Virus record (IMG/VR): IMGVR_UViG_3300011115_000698
Location: 1-36,695 of that record
Length of the DNA: 36,695 nt
Reading direction: 5' to 3' (one strand)
From: a virus
Below, one piece after another: positions 1,858-21,420 of the stretch (positions are counted from its first letter, which is position 1; each line of letters starts with the position of its first letter). The translations under genes and the position numbers were made by a program. The notes under the pieces are model-generated. The model searched no databases. It was not told where the DNA came from and worked only from the letters and a program-made list of their open reading frames with translations.

Positions 1858-2121
1858 TTATTTTTTAAAAGTTTCATTATAATAATTTTCCGCAGTTTTT
1901 TTATTGTGCGTAAATAATTCTCCCTCTTTATTTTCAATTTTCAACAACATATTAATAATTTTATTGACATACATAACATTATTTTTAGAGATAATATTAA
2001 TTGCGTTTAAAATTTTTTTTTCGTGCATTTTATTGGCTTGAATTTTAATTTGTTCCCATATTTGAGGCGTATTGTCTACGTCTTCAATTCTATCTATTAG
2101 CCATTGTATTGATGATTTCAT
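1858..2121 (-). CDS. Small accessory protein (WLID...YYNETFKK type), 87 aa
   Basis: I choose the ATG at 2121 (MKSSIQWLIDRIEDVDN), four bases after the helicase stop, over an upstream in-frame start that would overlap dnaB by about 50 bases. The N-terminal IQWLIDRIEDVD and C-terminal AENYYNETFKK are hallmarks of a small protein type frequent in Bacteroidota phages. The junction-spanning gene (MQTTIEWLVDQLTNVD) is a clear relative. The body is Lys/Asn/Ile-rich and helical. Function unknown. Confidence 0.8.
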   Translation of the reverse strand: MKSSIQWLIDRIEDVDNTPQIWEQIKIQANKMHEKKILNAINIISKNNVMYVNKIINMLLKIENKEGELFTHNKKTAENYYNETFKK

Positions 2122-16743: not shown

Positions 16744-17370
16744 TTAACTTGTTATTTTTAATTCAACGGGTATGTCCGAAATACAACTAATTGAAAACGT
16801 TTGATAAGAATAACCTCCAGCCATTTGCGGAAACGAATAATCTTCAACGACAAGCGATTGAATACCTAAATTTTGTAAAAATGTAGAAACCGCACCTTTT
16901 GATATAGGCGCTAAGCACCAGTCGTTAAGTTGTGAAATTTCAAGCGCGGGATAGTGCCCATTATACCCACATATAACGCCTTGAATAGAAACCTTCGCGT
17001 CGTCTTGCCCTATGTATTCTTTGACCGTACCGTTGCGTCCTTGTATTTCAGTTTTAACAATTCGCGAAGCAAAATCAACCGTAATAAGTACCGCGTCAAA
17101 TTGAATATCGGCAAACGTTACCTCTTTTAAAGTTAGGTTGTCAATATACGAGCCGCCTTTTAAAGTTAAATCCGCAAAAACGGGTGTACCCAGCGCCGAC
17201 GTACGAATAGCCGCGTCGCCTTGCCTAAACGCTTGCGCGTTTTTGGTTGTGTCGTAATCTTGTTTACGAGTATCGGGGACTTGCACGTTTCTAAGGTTAA
17301 AAGCCCGAATAAGCGCTCCCGTTGTGGCCGCTATTGGAAAAGCGGAATTTATTTTTACAAAATTGCTCAT
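16744..17370 (-). CDS. Tail/baseplate protein, DUF6046-like, 208 aa
   Basis: The protein has LRNVQVPDTRKQDYDTTKNA, then FADLTLKGGSYIDNLTLKEV and KEYIGQDDAKVSIQGVICGY. I recognise this as the type annotated DUF6046 in Bacteroidota phages, which occurs between the tape measure and hub genes. The position matches proteins that cap the tube end or start the baseplate (P2 gpU/T4 gp53-48 area). Its ATG overlaps the tape measure stop by one base. Role inferred from location. Confidence 0.7.
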   Translation of the reverse strand: MSNFVKINSAFPIAATTGALIRAFNLRNVQVPDTRKQDYDTTKNAQAFRQGDAAIRTSALGTPVFADLTLKGGSYIDNLTLKEVTFADIQFDAVLITVDFASRIVKTEIQGRNGTVKEYIGQDDAKVSIQGVICGYNGHYPALEISQLNDWCLAPISKGAVSTFLQNLGIQSLVVEDYSFPQMAGGYSYQTFSISCISDIPVELKITS

Positions 17371-18944
17371 TATATTCCCGCGGTTATTTGTGAATCATTA
17401 ACGGCGCTTAAAAGGGTTTGCGCTACTAATTCGCGCACTTTGCCCGTACCCTCGCCGATATTGTTTGTTTGAACTTTAAAAGTTTCTATTAATTTGCCTA
17501 TTGATATGTTTATTGTTACAGATTTGCTACCGGTTGCGCCTTTGGGTGACGTGTCTTTTTTTGCCTTAGTATCTTTTACTTCCTTTGCAGCAACTACAAC
17601 GCCCGCGTCCTTTTTTTCAGGTGTTTTTATTAAAGCCGATTGCTCTTTTGCGCTTTTTTCTTTTTTATCCGCGTCCATAACGCCATTATAGCCCTCTTTG
17701 TATGCCGTAGCCATTCTTTTACCAGCGTCGCCCATAGCGGACGAAGCCTTTTCCCATCCTGACATAACTTTTGTAGCGTCCAAATTCATAACGCCGTTTA
17801 TCATATCCCAAACGCCCGTAAATACATCTCCAACTATTCGACCAAATTCCTGAATAGTACCCCATACGCCAATAACAACCGCACGAAAACCGGTAAACGT
17901 ATTCCACGCATAAATTATCCCAGCAATTATTGCCGCTATACCCGCCACAACGAGTCCAGCAGGGCTTGCACTCATTGCAGCATTTAAAGCCCATTGCGCA
18001 AGCGTTAAACCTTCCTCGGAAGCTGCCGCAGCTATTGTATATGCTGTCCATATTCCCGTAACTATCCCACTTGCTGCAATATAACCGTTATAAAGTAATA
18101 AAACCGATGCTCCCGTTGCCAACATTGTTGCAAATAAACCAATAGTATCGCTATTTTTAACCGCCCAAGCAACCGCATTTTGTAACATTCCAACAAACCC
18201 ACCCAGCGCACCAACTACCGCCGAAATTGCGGGCTTCAACGATTCGCCAATTTTTAAATATAAAGCGCTAACACTATCTTCTAAGTTTGAAATTTGACCG
18301 CCCGTTGTTTGGCTAATTGCAGCCATGGCCCCGCTAACGCCATTCATTTCGCCGAGGCCGAGTAAATATTCCTGAATAGCTGCGGAATTATTTTTAACGG
18401 TTGTTTGTTGATTTTTAAACATAAAAGTAACATTGTCGCCACTTTTGGAAGCCTTGACGCCGAATTCCTTTAAACGTTCAAATTCGCCCGTCTGAGCGTC
18501 AATAACCGCCTCCGTTAATTGGTCAAAGCCTTTGCCCGTGCTACTTGCCAAATCGCCCATTTTGGTCATTTGGTCCATTGTAGGCTTGAAACCCATATTT
18601 GCGAGCTTTACATACGAGCCCGTCAATTCGTTTACCGCAAAAGGCGTTTTACTTGCAAAATCAGTAATATCCGCCATTGATTTTTTAGCTTCCGATCCTG
18701 AGCCCAAAGTATTAGTTAAAACGGCTTCGTATTTTTCAAATTCCGCAAGCGTGCTCACAACTTTGCCTCCAAATTCCATTACTTTGCCAATAGCAAAAGC
18801 GGCCCCGACGGCCGCGCCTACTTTTTTAATAGTGCCTTCAAGACCGCCCATTTTAACGTCTAATTTTATCGCGTTGCCTTCGGCGTCTTTAAGTTTTGCA
18901 CTTAAAAGGTCTTGTAAACTTATTGTATAAACTACATCAGCCAT
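17370..18944 (-). CDS. Tail tape measure protein, 524 aa
   Basis: The N-terminus has TIKKVGAAVGAAFAIGKVM and the conserved AEFEKYEAVLTNTLGSGSEA, FASKTPFAVNELTGSYVKLA, then GFDQLTEAVIDAQTGEFERL segment typical of tape measure proteins. Residues about 235-350 are hydrophobic, Ala/Gly-rich helices. The C-terminal 100 residues are charged and Lys-rich, ending with a beta part (SVTINISIGKLIETF). By the usual 0.15 nm per residue rule, the tail would be about 79 nm, a short contractile tail. The start overlaps the frameshifted chaperone frame. Confidence 0.92.
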   Translation of the reverse strand: MADVVYTISLQDLLSAKLKDAEGNAIKLDVKMGGLEGTIKKVGAAVGAAFAIGKVMEFGGKVVSTLAEFEKYEAVLTNTLGSGSEAKKSMADITDFASKTPFAVNELTGSYVKLANMGFKPTMDQMTKMGDLASSTGKGFDQLTEAVIDAQTGEFERLKEFGVKASKSGDNVTFMFKNQQTTVKNNSAAIQEYLLGLGEMNGVSGAMAAISQTTGGQISNLEDSVSALYLKIGESLKPAISAVVGALGGFVGMLQNAVAWAVKNSDTIGLFATMLATGASVLLLYNGYIAASGIVTGIWTAYTIAAAASEEGLTLAQWALNAAMSASPAGLVVAGIAAIIAGIIYAWNTFTGFRAVVIGVWGTIQEFGRIVGDVFTGVWDMINGVMNLDATKVMSGWEKASSAMGDAGKRMATAYKEGYNGVMDADKKEKSAKEQSALIKTPEKKDAGVVVAAKEVKDTKAKKDTSPKGATGSKSVTINISIGKLIETFKVQTNNIGEGTGKVRELVAQTLLSAVNDSQITAGI

Positions 18945-19110
18945 TTTCGGAGTATTGGTTTGTCTGTTTTAAAGCAAAATGCAAGCGGTTAATGTACCTA
19001 ACAAACGTATCGTCGTCGAGCGTGTCGGGGTCTACTTTAAAATAAAATTGAACTAACGCCTCCCATTGTGTTATCCCGTCATGGTGTGATTCAATGGTGT
19101 TTTCCTCTAT
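18937..19110 (-). CDS. Tail assembly chaperone, -1 frameshift extension (T part)
   Basis: From the base shared with the upstream frame, a -1 frame runs 57 codons from 19110 to a TGA at 18939-18937, overlapping the tape measure start by eight bases. It encodes IEENTIESHHDGITQWEALV and then DPDTLDDDTFVRYINRLHFA. ITQWEALV..YF and LDD.TF...I..L.FAL match the T domain that follows the G domain in lambda-like tail chaperones. No independent start codon fits; the product would be a 166-aa G-T fusion. T parts bind the tape measure protein. Confidence 0.85.
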   Translation of the reverse strand: MEENTIESHHDGITQWEALVQFYFKVDPDTLDDDTFVRYINRLHFALKQTNQYSENG

Positions 19111-19436
19111 TTTTTTTTAAACTGATTAACCGCCATACTAATCATATTATAAGCCTCCATTGTAGCGCCTAAATAATATTTATCGTTTTCGGGTTTTTCG
19201 TCCCATATACGCGCGTCCGATTCGTCCTTTAATAAGAAAGCCTCGACAACTTCGGCCGCAGCGGTTGCCGGTTGCGTTAGCCCTTTGTCCATAACGCGCA
19301 ATTTTACGTGTCGTGGCGGCTCTTTTATAAAGCCTATAATTTGGTCTTCACTTTCGCCAAAGACCAACGGGTGAACTTTACAATTTTCTCGAATTGAAAG
19401 CTCACCCGCTTTGTCGTTAATTTGTTCGTTTGTCAT
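19107..19436 (-). CDS. Tail assembly chaperone (G part), 109 aa
   Basis: The 0-frame protein MTNEQINDKAGELSIRENCK has VHPLVFGESEDQIIGFIKEP and LKDESDARIWDEKPENDKYY, then ends QFKKK at a stop inside a run of nine A. Tail chaperones occupy this spot between the tube and tape measure genes and are typically acidic and helical. A slippery A-AAA-AAA sequence sits at the stop, so a fraction of ribosomes should make the extended protein. It starts 25 bases after the tube gene. Confidence 0.85.
   Translation of the reverse strand: MTNEQINDKAGELSIRENCKVHPLVFGESEDQIIGFIKEPPRHVKLRVMDKGLTQPATAAAEVVEAFLLKDESDARIWDEKPENDKYYLGATMEAYNMISMAVNQFKKK
19110..19116 (-). promoter_or_regulatory. Programmed -1 frameshift slippery site
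   Basis: On the minus strand the 0 frame reads TTT AAA AAA AAA TAG, and the heptamer A AAA AAA at 19116-19110 is a standard -1 slip site. After slipping, the codons ATA GAG GAA continue into a 57-codon frame with a T-domain pattern. The slip position is the last base of the A run, directly before the 0-frame stop. Confidence 0.85.
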
Positions 19437-19461: not shown

Positions 19462-19878
19462 CTATCTTTCAATTAAACCAATAATTAAGGGCACGGTCAC
19501 CATTAATTTTGTATCGCCTGAACTAGCCGAAAAATTATCCTCCATAAATTCAACCGCTTTTAAAATATCTTTCTCCGCAGCAATTCCACGTCCTGAATAA
19601 ACGACTTGAATTTCAAAAGGCGGTATAGTTAAAGGGTCTTTATTAGGCGACGCGGCTATTATTCTTTTCCACTCGTCTTGATAAATTTCAATACTACCCT
19701 CGTACTCGTAATTACCGTAACCTCTTGAAACGGGTTGCGATCCAACGCCGTAGTTATTCTCTTTTTTTTGCTTTCTCTTGTATTCGATTTTGGTTATTCC
19801 AACTACGGGAACGCCGAACAAAACGAGCGTAATGTTAGCCCAAGAGTAATTAATACCGTTTATTAAAGGTGTTGCCAT
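19462..19878 (-). CDS. Tail tube protein, 138 aa
   Basis: Beta-rich 138-aa protein with INYSWANITLVLFGVPVVGI, then YKRKQKKENNYGVGSQPVSR, GYGNYEYEGSIEIYQDEWKR and a C-terminal VTVPLIIGLIER strand. The GxGxxPxxRGxG-type loop and the YEGSI(E) strand are typical of contractile-tail tube proteins in Bacteroidota phages. Its position directly after the sheath gene and before the chaperone pair is the canonical order. Several hundred copies would stack inside the sheath. Confidence 0.85.
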   Translation of the reverse strand: MATPLINGINYSWANITLVLFGVPVVGITKIEYKRKQKKENNYGVGSQPVSRGYGNYEYEGSIEIYQDEWKRIIAASPNKDPLTIPPFEIQVVYSGRGIAAEKDILKAVEFMEDNFSASSGDTKLMVTVPLIIGLIER

Positions 19879-19884
19879 TTTATT

Positions 19885-21420
19885 TTAAATTGAAAGTGTG
19901 AAACCAATATTTACCGTAATTTGACGCGCTACGCCGATAGGTACAATTTTAACCGAAATTGTTAAATTGTTAGTTGACAAAACGTTTTGTGTTGTGTCAA
20001 TATCTACCTCAAAGGCGCTTATTTCCGTATCCCTTACCATTTGCTCGAGATTAACGGAAGCCTGACCAATAAAGAAAGCTACCGTAGTATCGGTTAATGT
20101 ACCGTTTGCGTTCAATACTAACGGGCTATTTAAGTTTGGCAACATTGACGAATAAACGCCTCTAATAGCTTTGTCAATTGTTCTATTATTCTCAATATAA
20201 GCGTAATCGGAAGTAACCGCAATTGAACAATGCGAATCATTAAAATAGCTCCCAGAAATACCCACGTATTTAACAAGGAATATAAAACGGCGGTTATCCA
20301 AAATGTTTAATAAACTTTGCGATTGAGCACTTAATAAATTGCCATTTGCAAAACCTACTGTGTCGCATTCCGCACCGCTACTAATATTGTATTTAGAAAT
20401 CCACGCAATGTCCTCACTTACTTTTGCCAAAGCAACCGCTCCCAAAGTAGCGCCCAAAGTAGTTATTGATTTCGTTGAAGTTTTATAAAGGTAATTACCT
20501 TGTCCCGCTGCATCCTGACTAATTACTACCGAAACGTTACCGCAACTTAATGTCGCTAAATCGGGCAAAGTACTTAAATCAGTAACGCCAACAATATCAG
20601 CCGCGTAAACTATGCTTAAAGGTTTATGAAGCCCCGCGAGTGTGTTCGCTTGCGTTTGTAAAGCCTGAGCCTCCGCTAAGAAAGACGCAGCCACGCCAAT
20701 AGTTTTAAATACCCCTATTTGACGTATTTTACCCTCTGCAAAGTTTTGCACGTCTTGCACTTCGCTAAACGTGTAAGAAGACGGAACGGCAAAGAAACCG
20801 ACATATAATTGCCCCTTTGGTTGTAATCTAAAAAATTCGCTTATATGATAGTAGTAAGTAGCAAAAGCGGAAGCAACGCCCCCAGCAAAAGCCGTGATAG
20901 TGCCCGTAATTGTGCCCGTTATAGTTACTACCAAAGGCGTACCCGTATTTAAGAAAACCCCTAATCTTTTAGGCGCCGTTATAGCAATTGCCCCCACCGT
21001 TGGGACGCAACTATAACCCGTGTTTATGGTGTTATTATTTATAGCGGTTGCAATGCTCGCAGCTAACAAAGTAACGGTTGTGTCCGATGATGTACGCGTG
21101 TACGTGCAAAGTGTTGTTGTTTGTGCTACGCCCGCAGTTGATAAATCAGCTACGGTAATCGTAATAACGTCGCCCGTTGCCCCCACCGCCGTAACGGTAT
21201 AAGTCCCACTCGCAGCCGTTGCGTCCGAATAGTCGTTTTTGATACCCGCATTTATAGCGTCTTGCGTGCTTCCTATTGATTTTATTCTACTTGTCGAAGT
21301 AAAGCCCGACGGAAGCGTTGCCGCCGTATAGTAAACAAGTCCACTAATGTAGTCCTCGCCCTCTAACGGTCTACCTAACCCCCCCTGACCTTTGACAAAT
21401 ATAACGTCGTTTAGTGCCAT
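19885..21420 (-). CDS. Tail sheath protein (DUF2586-like), 511 aa
   Basis: The N-terminus MALNDVIFVKGQGGLGRPLE and later LYVGFFAVPSSYTFSEVQDV, NFAEGKIRQIGVFKTIG and AVTSDYAYIENNRTIDKAIR follow the sheath type labelled DUF2586 in Bacteroidota phages. The C-terminus (FEVDIDTTQNVLSTNNLTIS, VKIVPIGVARQITVNIGF) has the strand pattern of a sheath C-terminal arm. An inserted Thr/Val-rich beta domain at about residues 65-175 (TYTVTAVGATGDVITITVAD) probably decorates the outside. Contractile function is supported by the following tube gene. Confidence 0.85.
   Translation of the reverse strand: MALNDVIFVKGQGGLGRPLEGEDYISGLVYYTAATLPSGFTSTSRIKSIGSTQDAINAGIKNDYSDATAASGTYTVTAVGATGDVITITVADLSTAGVAQTTTLCTYTRTSSDTTVTLLAASIATAINNNTINTGYSCVPTVGAIAITAPKRLGVFLNTGTPLVVTITGTITGTITAFAGGVASAFATYYYHISEFFRLQPKGQLYVGFFAVPSSYTFSEVQDVQNFAEGKIRQIGVFKTIGVAASFLAEAQALQTQANTLAGLHKPLSIVYAADIVGVTDLSTLPDLATLSCGNVSVVISQDAAGQGNYLYKTSTKSITTLGATLGAVALAKVSEDIAWISKYNISSGAECDTVGFANGNLLSAQSQSLLNILDNRRFIFLVKYVGISGSYFNDSHCSIAVTSDYAYIENNRTIDKAIRGVYSSMLPNLNSPLVLNANGTLTDTTVAFFIGQASVNLEQMVRDTEISAFEVDIDTTQNVLSTNNLTISVKIVPIGVARQITVNIGFTLSI

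What the first reader, a model, noticed from the sequence alone, without database searches (positions are those of the whole stretch)
18937..19436. Classical -1 programmed frameshift for the tail chaperone pair
The G-like chaperone ends at TTT AAA AAA AAA TAG, and the A AAA AAA heptamer leads in the -1 frame to 57 more codons with the T-domain pattern (ITQWEALV, LDDDTFVRYI). The extension has no start codon of its own and ends eight bases inside the tape measure start. This matches the lambda G/G-T arrangement, here in a Bacteroidota contractile-tail phage.
Basis: partly seen in the sequence, partly recalled or inferred. Interest (0 to 1): 0.7.

Follow-up and report, generated by a model that had tools for sequence, protein, structure and literature searches.

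The report
Nine-A slip site in tail chaperone
A bacterial virus makes a short and a long form of a tail-building helper protein by slipping one letter at a run of nine A's; its relatives keep exactly nine A's in any reading phase, which suggests that the enzyme copying DNA to RNA slips, not only the ribosome.

Summary
On the minus strand, gene G (109 aa) ends TTT AAA AAA AAA TAG. The -1 frame is opened by a TAA just before the run, has no ATG, runs 57 codons past the G stop and ends 8 bases inside the tape-measure gene. G and T lie in different frames in 192 of 192 unique relatives that have both; T is in the -1 frame in 191, never fused, and under purifying selection. A G/GT frame transition is near certain.

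'Classical ribosomal' is less secure. Across 128 dereplicated loci sites are bimodal: A_AAA_AAG/AAC, or a long A run, usually exactly nine. In the window's 67-member clade, 60 keep exactly nine A's although the run sits in all three codon phases and the peptide changes. A second clade is 10 of 10 A9. One candidate host tolerates A6-A8 in genes but avoids A9 and longer. This fits RNA-polymerase slippage (as in Thermus dnaX) better than a heptamer. Against it: many A9 relatives, not the window, carry a hairpin 3' of the run, which can act only after transcription. Verdict: known G/GT device; probable new variant of its slip mechanism (about 0.57). Only RNA-level tests can decide.

The parts
19107..19436 (-). 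G-like tail assembly chaperone ORF (109 aa plus TAG)
   Evidence: AlphaFold2 model pLDDT 88.7; no PHROG/Pfam family above cut-off; profile match to A6-type G proteins, probability 98.6%
19110..19118 (-). A9 slip run (holds the in-frame A_AAA_AAA heptamer)
   Evidence: exactly nine in 60 of 67 clade members
19117..19119 (-). TAA in the -1 frame that opens the T frame at the run
   Evidence: -1 frame open from -7 relative to the G stop
19107..19109 (-). TAG stop of G, directly after the run
18937..19110 (-). T domain: 57 codons in the -1 frame (18940-19110) plus TGA (18937-18939); no ATG
   Evidence: AlphaFold2 pLDDT 87.4; profile match to T of A6-type loci, probability 99.1%, E 8.5e-19
17370..18944 (-). 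tail tape measure protein; its ATG overlaps the end of T by 8 bases
   Evidence: PHROG 5062 4.1e-49, TMP_3 1.7e-10
19462..19878 (-). tail tube protein, upstream neighbour used to collect relatives
   Evidence: PHROG 4579 6.4e-25
19885..21420 (-). tail sheath (contractile tail)
   Evidence: DUF2586 2.2e-42, PHROG 907 1.1e-37

Best explanation
The gene pair encodes a tail assembly chaperone G (109 aa) and, from a minority of gene expression events, a G-T fusion of 166 aa made by a one-base shift inside the run of nine A's. Shown by sequence: the layout, its conservation, selection on T in the -1 frame, and conservation of run length rather than codon phase. Inferred: in this clade the shift arises mainly because RNA polymerase realigns on the A9 run and adds one A to a fraction of transcripts (A10), which ribosomes then read straight through into T; ribosomal slippage on the same run may add to it. 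By analogy with lambda (recalled, and PMC5009743 passages), G coats the tape measure and the T end recruits tube subunits, with the G:GT ratio set by the slip rate.
For: Frame transition: G and T are both present in 192 of 194 unique loci, 0 of 192 in one ORF, T in the -1 frame in 191 of 192; substitutions at codon positions 1/2/3 of the T frame are 0.23/0.16/0.48; no usable start in the window. Polymerase slippage: run lengths over 128 dereplicated loci are 9 in 71, 6 in 36, 8 in 8, 7 in 2, 10 in 1, under 6 in 10; in the window's clade (67 rows, SH-aLRT 100) exactly nine in 60, eight in 5, ten in 1, six in 1, across codon phases 0, 1 and 2 with changing peptides; a second, separate clade (SH-aLRT 98) has nine in 10 of 10. 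A candidate-host MAG sample (392 CDS) shows A8 51 vs 42.6 expected, A9 4 vs 13.7, A10+ 0 vs 6.3, T9 1 vs 10.1, and in-phase A7/A8 and A_AAA_AAG are not avoided. In A9-type phage loci only 2 coding A9+ runs lie outside the junction, against about 30 expected. The window has no 3' structure: synonymous-codon z -0.07. A6-type loci show excess pairing at +7..+18, the usual ribosomal-stimulator spacing, and A9-type loci do not (0.19 vs 0.03, p 5.8e-6, not corrected for phylogeny). Published: bacterial polymerase slips efficiently in vivo at nine A or T; Thermus dnaX uses it (PMC5009743 passages).
Against: No RNA or protein data. Every A9 also contains an in-frame A_AAA_AAN, so a ribosomal shift is possible. 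61% of 80 A8-A10 loci have a selected RNA structure in T 3' of the run, at about +25 to +70, which cannot act on a polymerase still at the run; my prediction that A9 loci lack 3' structure failed for the group. Eight of 128 have eight A's, some as A8G/A8C that keep a good heptamer, and L165 inside the clade has A6G. A9 avoidance may reflect DNA instability, and A9 in codon phase 2 was not depleted in the host (2 vs 2.3). In only about 5 phylogenetically independent pairs did the proximal-structure contrast tend the right way, not significant. E. coli polymerase slips less on A runs than T runs (PMC6260861 abstract). The host test used one MAG, and the phage-host link is inferred.
Confidence: 0.57

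Rival explanations
1. Ribosomal -1 frameshifting at the in-frame A_AAA_AAA within the run; the extra A's and the TAG directly after the run only raise its efficiency (repeated lysine codons, slow termination).
For: An in-frame heptamer is present in all A9 sites. The homologous gene pair in sister lineages uses A_AAA_AAG or A_AAA_AAC with proximal 3' structure, so ribosomal shifting is probably the family's ancestral mode (root not inferred). Most A9 relatives have selected 3' RNA structure. A8G and A6G variants occur. Certain tailed phages shift without stimulators (PMC5009743 passage).
Against: Only seven bases are needed, yet nine are kept in all three phases. A7 sites are almost absent (2 of 128) although AAA is 72% of lysine codons in the A9-type loci and 61% in the A6-type loci. 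In-phase A7/A8 are not avoided in the candidate host. The window lacks 3' structure.
Confidence: 0.36
2. Both act together at the same run: polymerase slippage supplies part of the fusion and ribosomal slippage the rest, tuned in some lineages by the distal hairpin.
For: Nine-A length plus in-frame heptamer plus distal hairpin in many relatives. A review states that both may occur at one site (PMC5009743 passage), and 9 IS clusters were thought to use both (PMC4066793 passage).
Against: No test here separates the shares; the hairpin is absent in the window and its nearest relatives.
Confidence: 0.3
3. No frame transition: the extension is a chance open frame, a decaying remnant or an assembly error.
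For: One contig (L209) does have one A fewer and a different frame relation, so errors or indels occur.
Against: Conserved in 191 of 192 unique loci, coding constraint in the -1 frame, confident fold, homology of T over very divergent loci.
Confidence: 0.02

Closest known systems
Lambda gpG/gpGT tail assembly chaperone pair (recalled; PMC5009743 passages)
   Same: Two overlapping frames between the tail tube and tape-measure genes, T only reachable by a -1 shift near the end of G.
   Different: Nine-A homopolymer with the stop directly after it, not lambda's site (G_GGA_AAG, recalled); contractile tail; no detectable sequence family in PHROGs or Pfam; slip mechanism may be transcriptional.
dnaX of E. 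coli (A_AAA_AAG, recalled; ribosomal) versus Thermus thermophilus dnaX (nine-base run, polymerase slippage; PMC5009743 passages)
   Same: The same pair of solutions for homologous genes: A6G/A6C sites in sister phages, A9 in the window's clade.
   Different: In Thermus dnaX slippage gives a shorter product; here a longer one.
Shigella spa13 (polymerase slippage; extension overlaps the start of the needle-length gene spa32; PMC5009743 passage)
   Same: An extension made by slippage whose coding end overlaps the start of the length-ruler gene.
   Different: Type III secretion, not a phage tail; no homology tested or claimed.
Winoviridae (Peternella_1, pippi8-1, lotta8, FPSV phages)
   Same: Same gene order and homologous tube; A_AAA_AAG at the end of G and T in the -1 frame.
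   Different: Tube identity to the window only about 31-36%; short site instead of A9.

Membership tests
Lambda-type G/GT tail assembly chaperone pair | Lies between the major tail tube gene and the tape measure gene | tested here: met
Lambda-type G/GT tail assembly chaperone pair | T is in the -1 frame, has no start of its own, and is conserved as such | tested here: met
   (191 of 192; none fused)
Lambda-type G/GT tail assembly chaperone pair | Homology or fold shared with a known chaperone | tested here: inconclusive
   Weak structural matches: 3fgx Z 7.9, YqbN 3klu Z 4.5, HK97 chaperone 2ob9 Z 3.4; no sequence family
Lambda-type G/GT tail assembly chaperone pair | Both products made in a fixed ratio and needed for tails | not testable with these tools
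   needs protein and mutant data
Ribosomal -1 frameshift site | In-frame X_XXY_YYZ heptamer | tested here: met
   A_AAA_AAA at the end of codons 107-109
Ribosomal -1 frameshift site | 3' stimulatory structure about 5-9 nt after the site (common, not essential) | tested here: not met
   window dinucleotide z +0.91/-0.27/-0.88 for 5-45, 5-65 and 5-95 nt; synonymous z -0.07
Ribosomal -1 frameshift site | Shift happens in translation | not testable with these tools
   needs RNA and reporter data
Programmed transcriptional realignment site | Uninterrupted run of about nine or more A/T, conserved as a run | tested here: met
   exactly nine in 60 of 67 clade rows, in three codon phases
Programmed transcriptional realignment site | Host coding sequences avoid runs of this length (criterion of PMC1088944) | tested here: met
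   one candidate host, A9 4 vs 13.7 and A10+ 0 vs 6.3; weaker for codon phase 2
Programmed transcriptional realignment site | Transcripts with extra A's are present | not testable with these tools
   needs RNA sequencing

The most novel reading that the evidence does not exclude
Contractile-tail phages of Bacteroidota have, at least twice independently, swapped the ribosomal frameshift of the tail chaperone (A_AAA_AAG/AAC plus proximal RNA structure) for a nine-A run at which the host RNA polymerase slips, so that the G:GT ratio and hence tail assembly is set by transcription rather than by the ribosome.
Probability: 0.45. Interest if true: 0.75.

Novelty: new variant of a known kind. Interest (0 to 1): 0.55.

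Why it matters
The G/GT shift is one of the commonest recoding events in phages and is treated as ribosomal, as are the programs that predict it. If this clade uses polymerase slippage, the same output has been reached by two mechanisms in homologous genes, with sister lineages ready for comparison. It would also mean that G/GT annotation and mass spectrometry cannot by themselves show the mechanism. The phase-free conservation of run length is a simple comparative test that can be applied to other recoded genes.

Tried and rejected
Prediction that A9 sites lack 3' RNA structure: wrong for the group; true for the window and its nearest relatives only.

Idea that the distal hairpin of A9 relatives is an intrinsic terminator or attenuator inside T: the pattern scan found no terminator in L218, the one such locus scanned, and the mean T count in the 10 bases at the 3' end of the helix is 4.3 (no control made); dropped.

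Test of proximal structure on phylogenetically independent pairs: too few pairs (5), not significant.

Pfam, PHROG and PDB sequence searches with G and T: nothing named. The 18 A6-type or run-less G proteins scanned all fall in PHROG 19076, unknown function. Foldseek of T against BFVD gave only weak hits, among them an unnamed 42-aa protein of Flavobacterium phage lotta8-1. Rfam: no match in the window.

Selection made by me: the classes short/long/other were defined after seeing the table. Segments under 500 nt were dropped before counting (number not printed). The ORF pipeline lost 6 of 194 unique loci (L036, L094, L100, L166, L256 with no pair; L209 with +1 only). 188 loci were cut to 128 by similarity, and 11 'other' rows were left out of the structure tests. 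The G and T profiles were built from some of the same loci.

Full report
What is there. On the minus strand of the window the order is sheath (21420..19885), tube (19878..19462), G (19436..19107), T (-1 frame, 19110..18937) and tape measure (18944..17370). G ends TTT AAA AAA AAA TAG. In the -1 frame a TAA immediately precedes the run, so the only place to change frame is the run itself. T then runs 57 codons and stops 8 bases inside the tape-measure gene. It has no ATG, and its first GTG/TTG is 41 codons past the G stop. The sheath is a DUF2586 protein, so the tail is contractile. By tube protein, the nearest relative in a cellular assembly is on a contig in a Parafilimonas MAG (70% identity), which makes a Bacteroidota host likely but not proven.

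Is it real. Tube-protein queries gave 326 sequences with a tube (window included), of which 194 had unique downstream segments of at least 500 bases. With profiles of G and T, 192 of 194 have both; in 0 of 192 are they in one frame, and in 191 T is in the -1 frame. The exception, L209, has one A fewer than its near kin and may be an indel or an assembly error. Substitution rates at codon positions 1, 2, 3 of the T frame are 0.23, 0.16, 0.48 over 123 pairs, much like G in its own frame (0.26, 0.18, 0.53 over 166 pairs). G and T of A9-type loci match G and T of the distant A6-type loci by profile comparison (98.6% and 99.1%). AlphaFold2 models are confident (88.7 and 87.4). The G model resembles 3fgx (Z 7.9), YqbN (Z 4.5) and the HK97 tail assembly chaperone (Z 3.4); the last two are weak.

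Which site. Of 188 unique loci parsed, the A run at the end of G is nine long in 118, six in 48, eight in 8, seven in 3, ten in 1 and under six in 10. After cutting near-copies (128 loci): nine in 71, six in 36, eight in 8, seven in 2, ten in 1, under six in 10. The short sites are A_AAA_AAG or A_AAA_AAC and include named phages: Peternella_1, pippi8-1, lotta8-2 and FPSV-S1. The window's clade (67 rows, SH-aLRT 100) holds exactly nine A's in 60, eight in 5, ten in 1 and six in 1. The run starts at codon position 1 in 53 rows, position 2 in 3 and position 3 in 11 (the A6 row among these). The last residues differ accordingly (FKKK, QKKS, LKKN and others), so the peptide is not what is conserved. 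A second clade (10 rows, SH-aLRT 98) is A9 in 10 of 10. The tree rests on 146 columns of one protein and many forks are open.

Why polymerase slippage is favoured. A ribosomal heptamer A_AAA_AAN fixes seven bases in one phase; here nine are fixed in any phase. Seven-A sites are nearly absent although AAA is the common lysine codon (72% in A9-type and 61% in A6-type loci). Nine is where bacterial RNA polymerase is reported to slip efficiently in vivo, and Thermus dnaX uses it (PMC5009743, passages). I applied the avoidance criterion of Baranov et al. 2005 (PMC1088944, Results section read) to 40 contig heads of the candidate host (590 kb, 392 CDS): A8 51 observed, 42.6 expected; A9 4 vs 13.7; A10 or more 0 vs 6.3; T9 1 vs 10.1; T10 or more 1 vs 6.4. 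In-phase A7, A8 and A_AAA_AAG are not avoided there, which suggests that a ribosomal shift at those words is not costly while something at nine is. In A9-type phage loci (421 kb of CDS) 10 of 12 coding runs of nine or more are the junction itself; about 30 were expected. In the whole window, A9 occurs twice against 31 in shuffles.

Evidence pulling the other way. I predicted that A9 sites would lack 3' RNA structure. As a group they do not: synonymous-codon z under -2 in 61% of 80 A8-A10 loci and 51% of 37 A6/A7 loci. The structures differ in place: A6 sites pair in excess at +7 to +18 (0.19 against 0.03, p 5.8e-6), the usual spacing of ribosomal stimulators, and A9 sites at +25 to +42 (0.13 against 0.03, p 0.0018). 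These p values ignore phylogeny; about five independent pairs lean the same way without significance. L165, the one A6G site inside the A9 clade, has strong proximal pairing (0.40). A 3' hairpin cannot act on a polymerase still at the run, so the distal hairpin must do something after transcription; what, is open. The window and its nearest relatives have no such hairpin (window synonymous z -0.07). Eight-A variants with an intact heptamer also exist. E. coli data show motif AAAAAAA under-represented in all frames, for which its authors name transcriptional slippage or indel mutation as possible reasons (PMC4066793 passage).

How it most likely works. Shown: a two-frame G/T gene conserved over a large phage group. 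Inferred: G is made from normal transcripts; GT (166 aa) from transcripts with one extra A or from ribosomes that slip. Both routes give the same protein, so protein data cannot tell them apart. By analogy with lambda (PMC5009743 passages), G binds the tape measure and T brings in tube subunits.

Context. Flavobacterium ribosomes keep the anti-Shine-Dalgarno hidden (PMC8710568 passages), so an upstream Shine-Dalgarno stimulator like that of E. coli dnaX (recalled) may be less available to these phages; this is only a thought, and the same paper shows that prfB frameshifting persists in this class. Library searches for slippage with tail chaperone, tape measure, phage structural proteins or Bacteroidetes (listings, with passages from several papers) showed no report of polymerase slippage in a tail chaperone gene. 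The library holds open-access papers only, so this is weak evidence of novelty.

Verdict. The finding is real and mostly a known device. Its slip mechanism is probably a new variant, at 0.57, with the ribosomal reading at about 0.36 and a mixture possible.

Noticed in passing
L106, L252, L270, L274, L275, L278, L093, L189, L091, L095: G and T are in the -1 relation but there is no A run of six or more next to the G stop; G often ends GAR CTT TAG or AAG CTC TAA. The shift site there is unexplained.
   Followed up: partly
L209 around 4785: Eight A's where near relatives have nine; G runs on and T is in the +1 relation: natural indel or assembly error.
   Followed up: partly
A9-type loci, about +20 to +75 after the run (e.g. 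L050, L063, L073, L198): Long hairpin in the T coding region; a helix of 9 bp or more somewhere in the 110 nt after the run in 53 of 80 loci. Role unknown; absent in the window.
   Followed up: partly
L207, L216, L267, L285 and kin: A_AAA_AAC sites, several with a strong stem starting about 7 nt downstream: textbook ribosomal frameshift signals in phages of this group.
   Followed up: partly
L088:5045-5173 and L097:5045-5173: Flavobacterium phages pippi8-1 and lotta8-2 annotate T as a separate 42-aa ORF; in Peternella_1 and FPSV-S1 T is not annotated.
   Followed up: no
L095 (Bacteroides phage BS-TP1): The tube is annotated as a portal protein and the sheath as a DarB-like protein, probably misannotations.
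   Followed up: no
L036: An inserted gene lies between tube and G; an A9 run lies in the G/T region further on.
   Followed up: partly
window 2013-2021 (-): The only other A9 in the window, in a small ORF; the other frames stop soon after, so no second product is apparent.
   Followed up: yes
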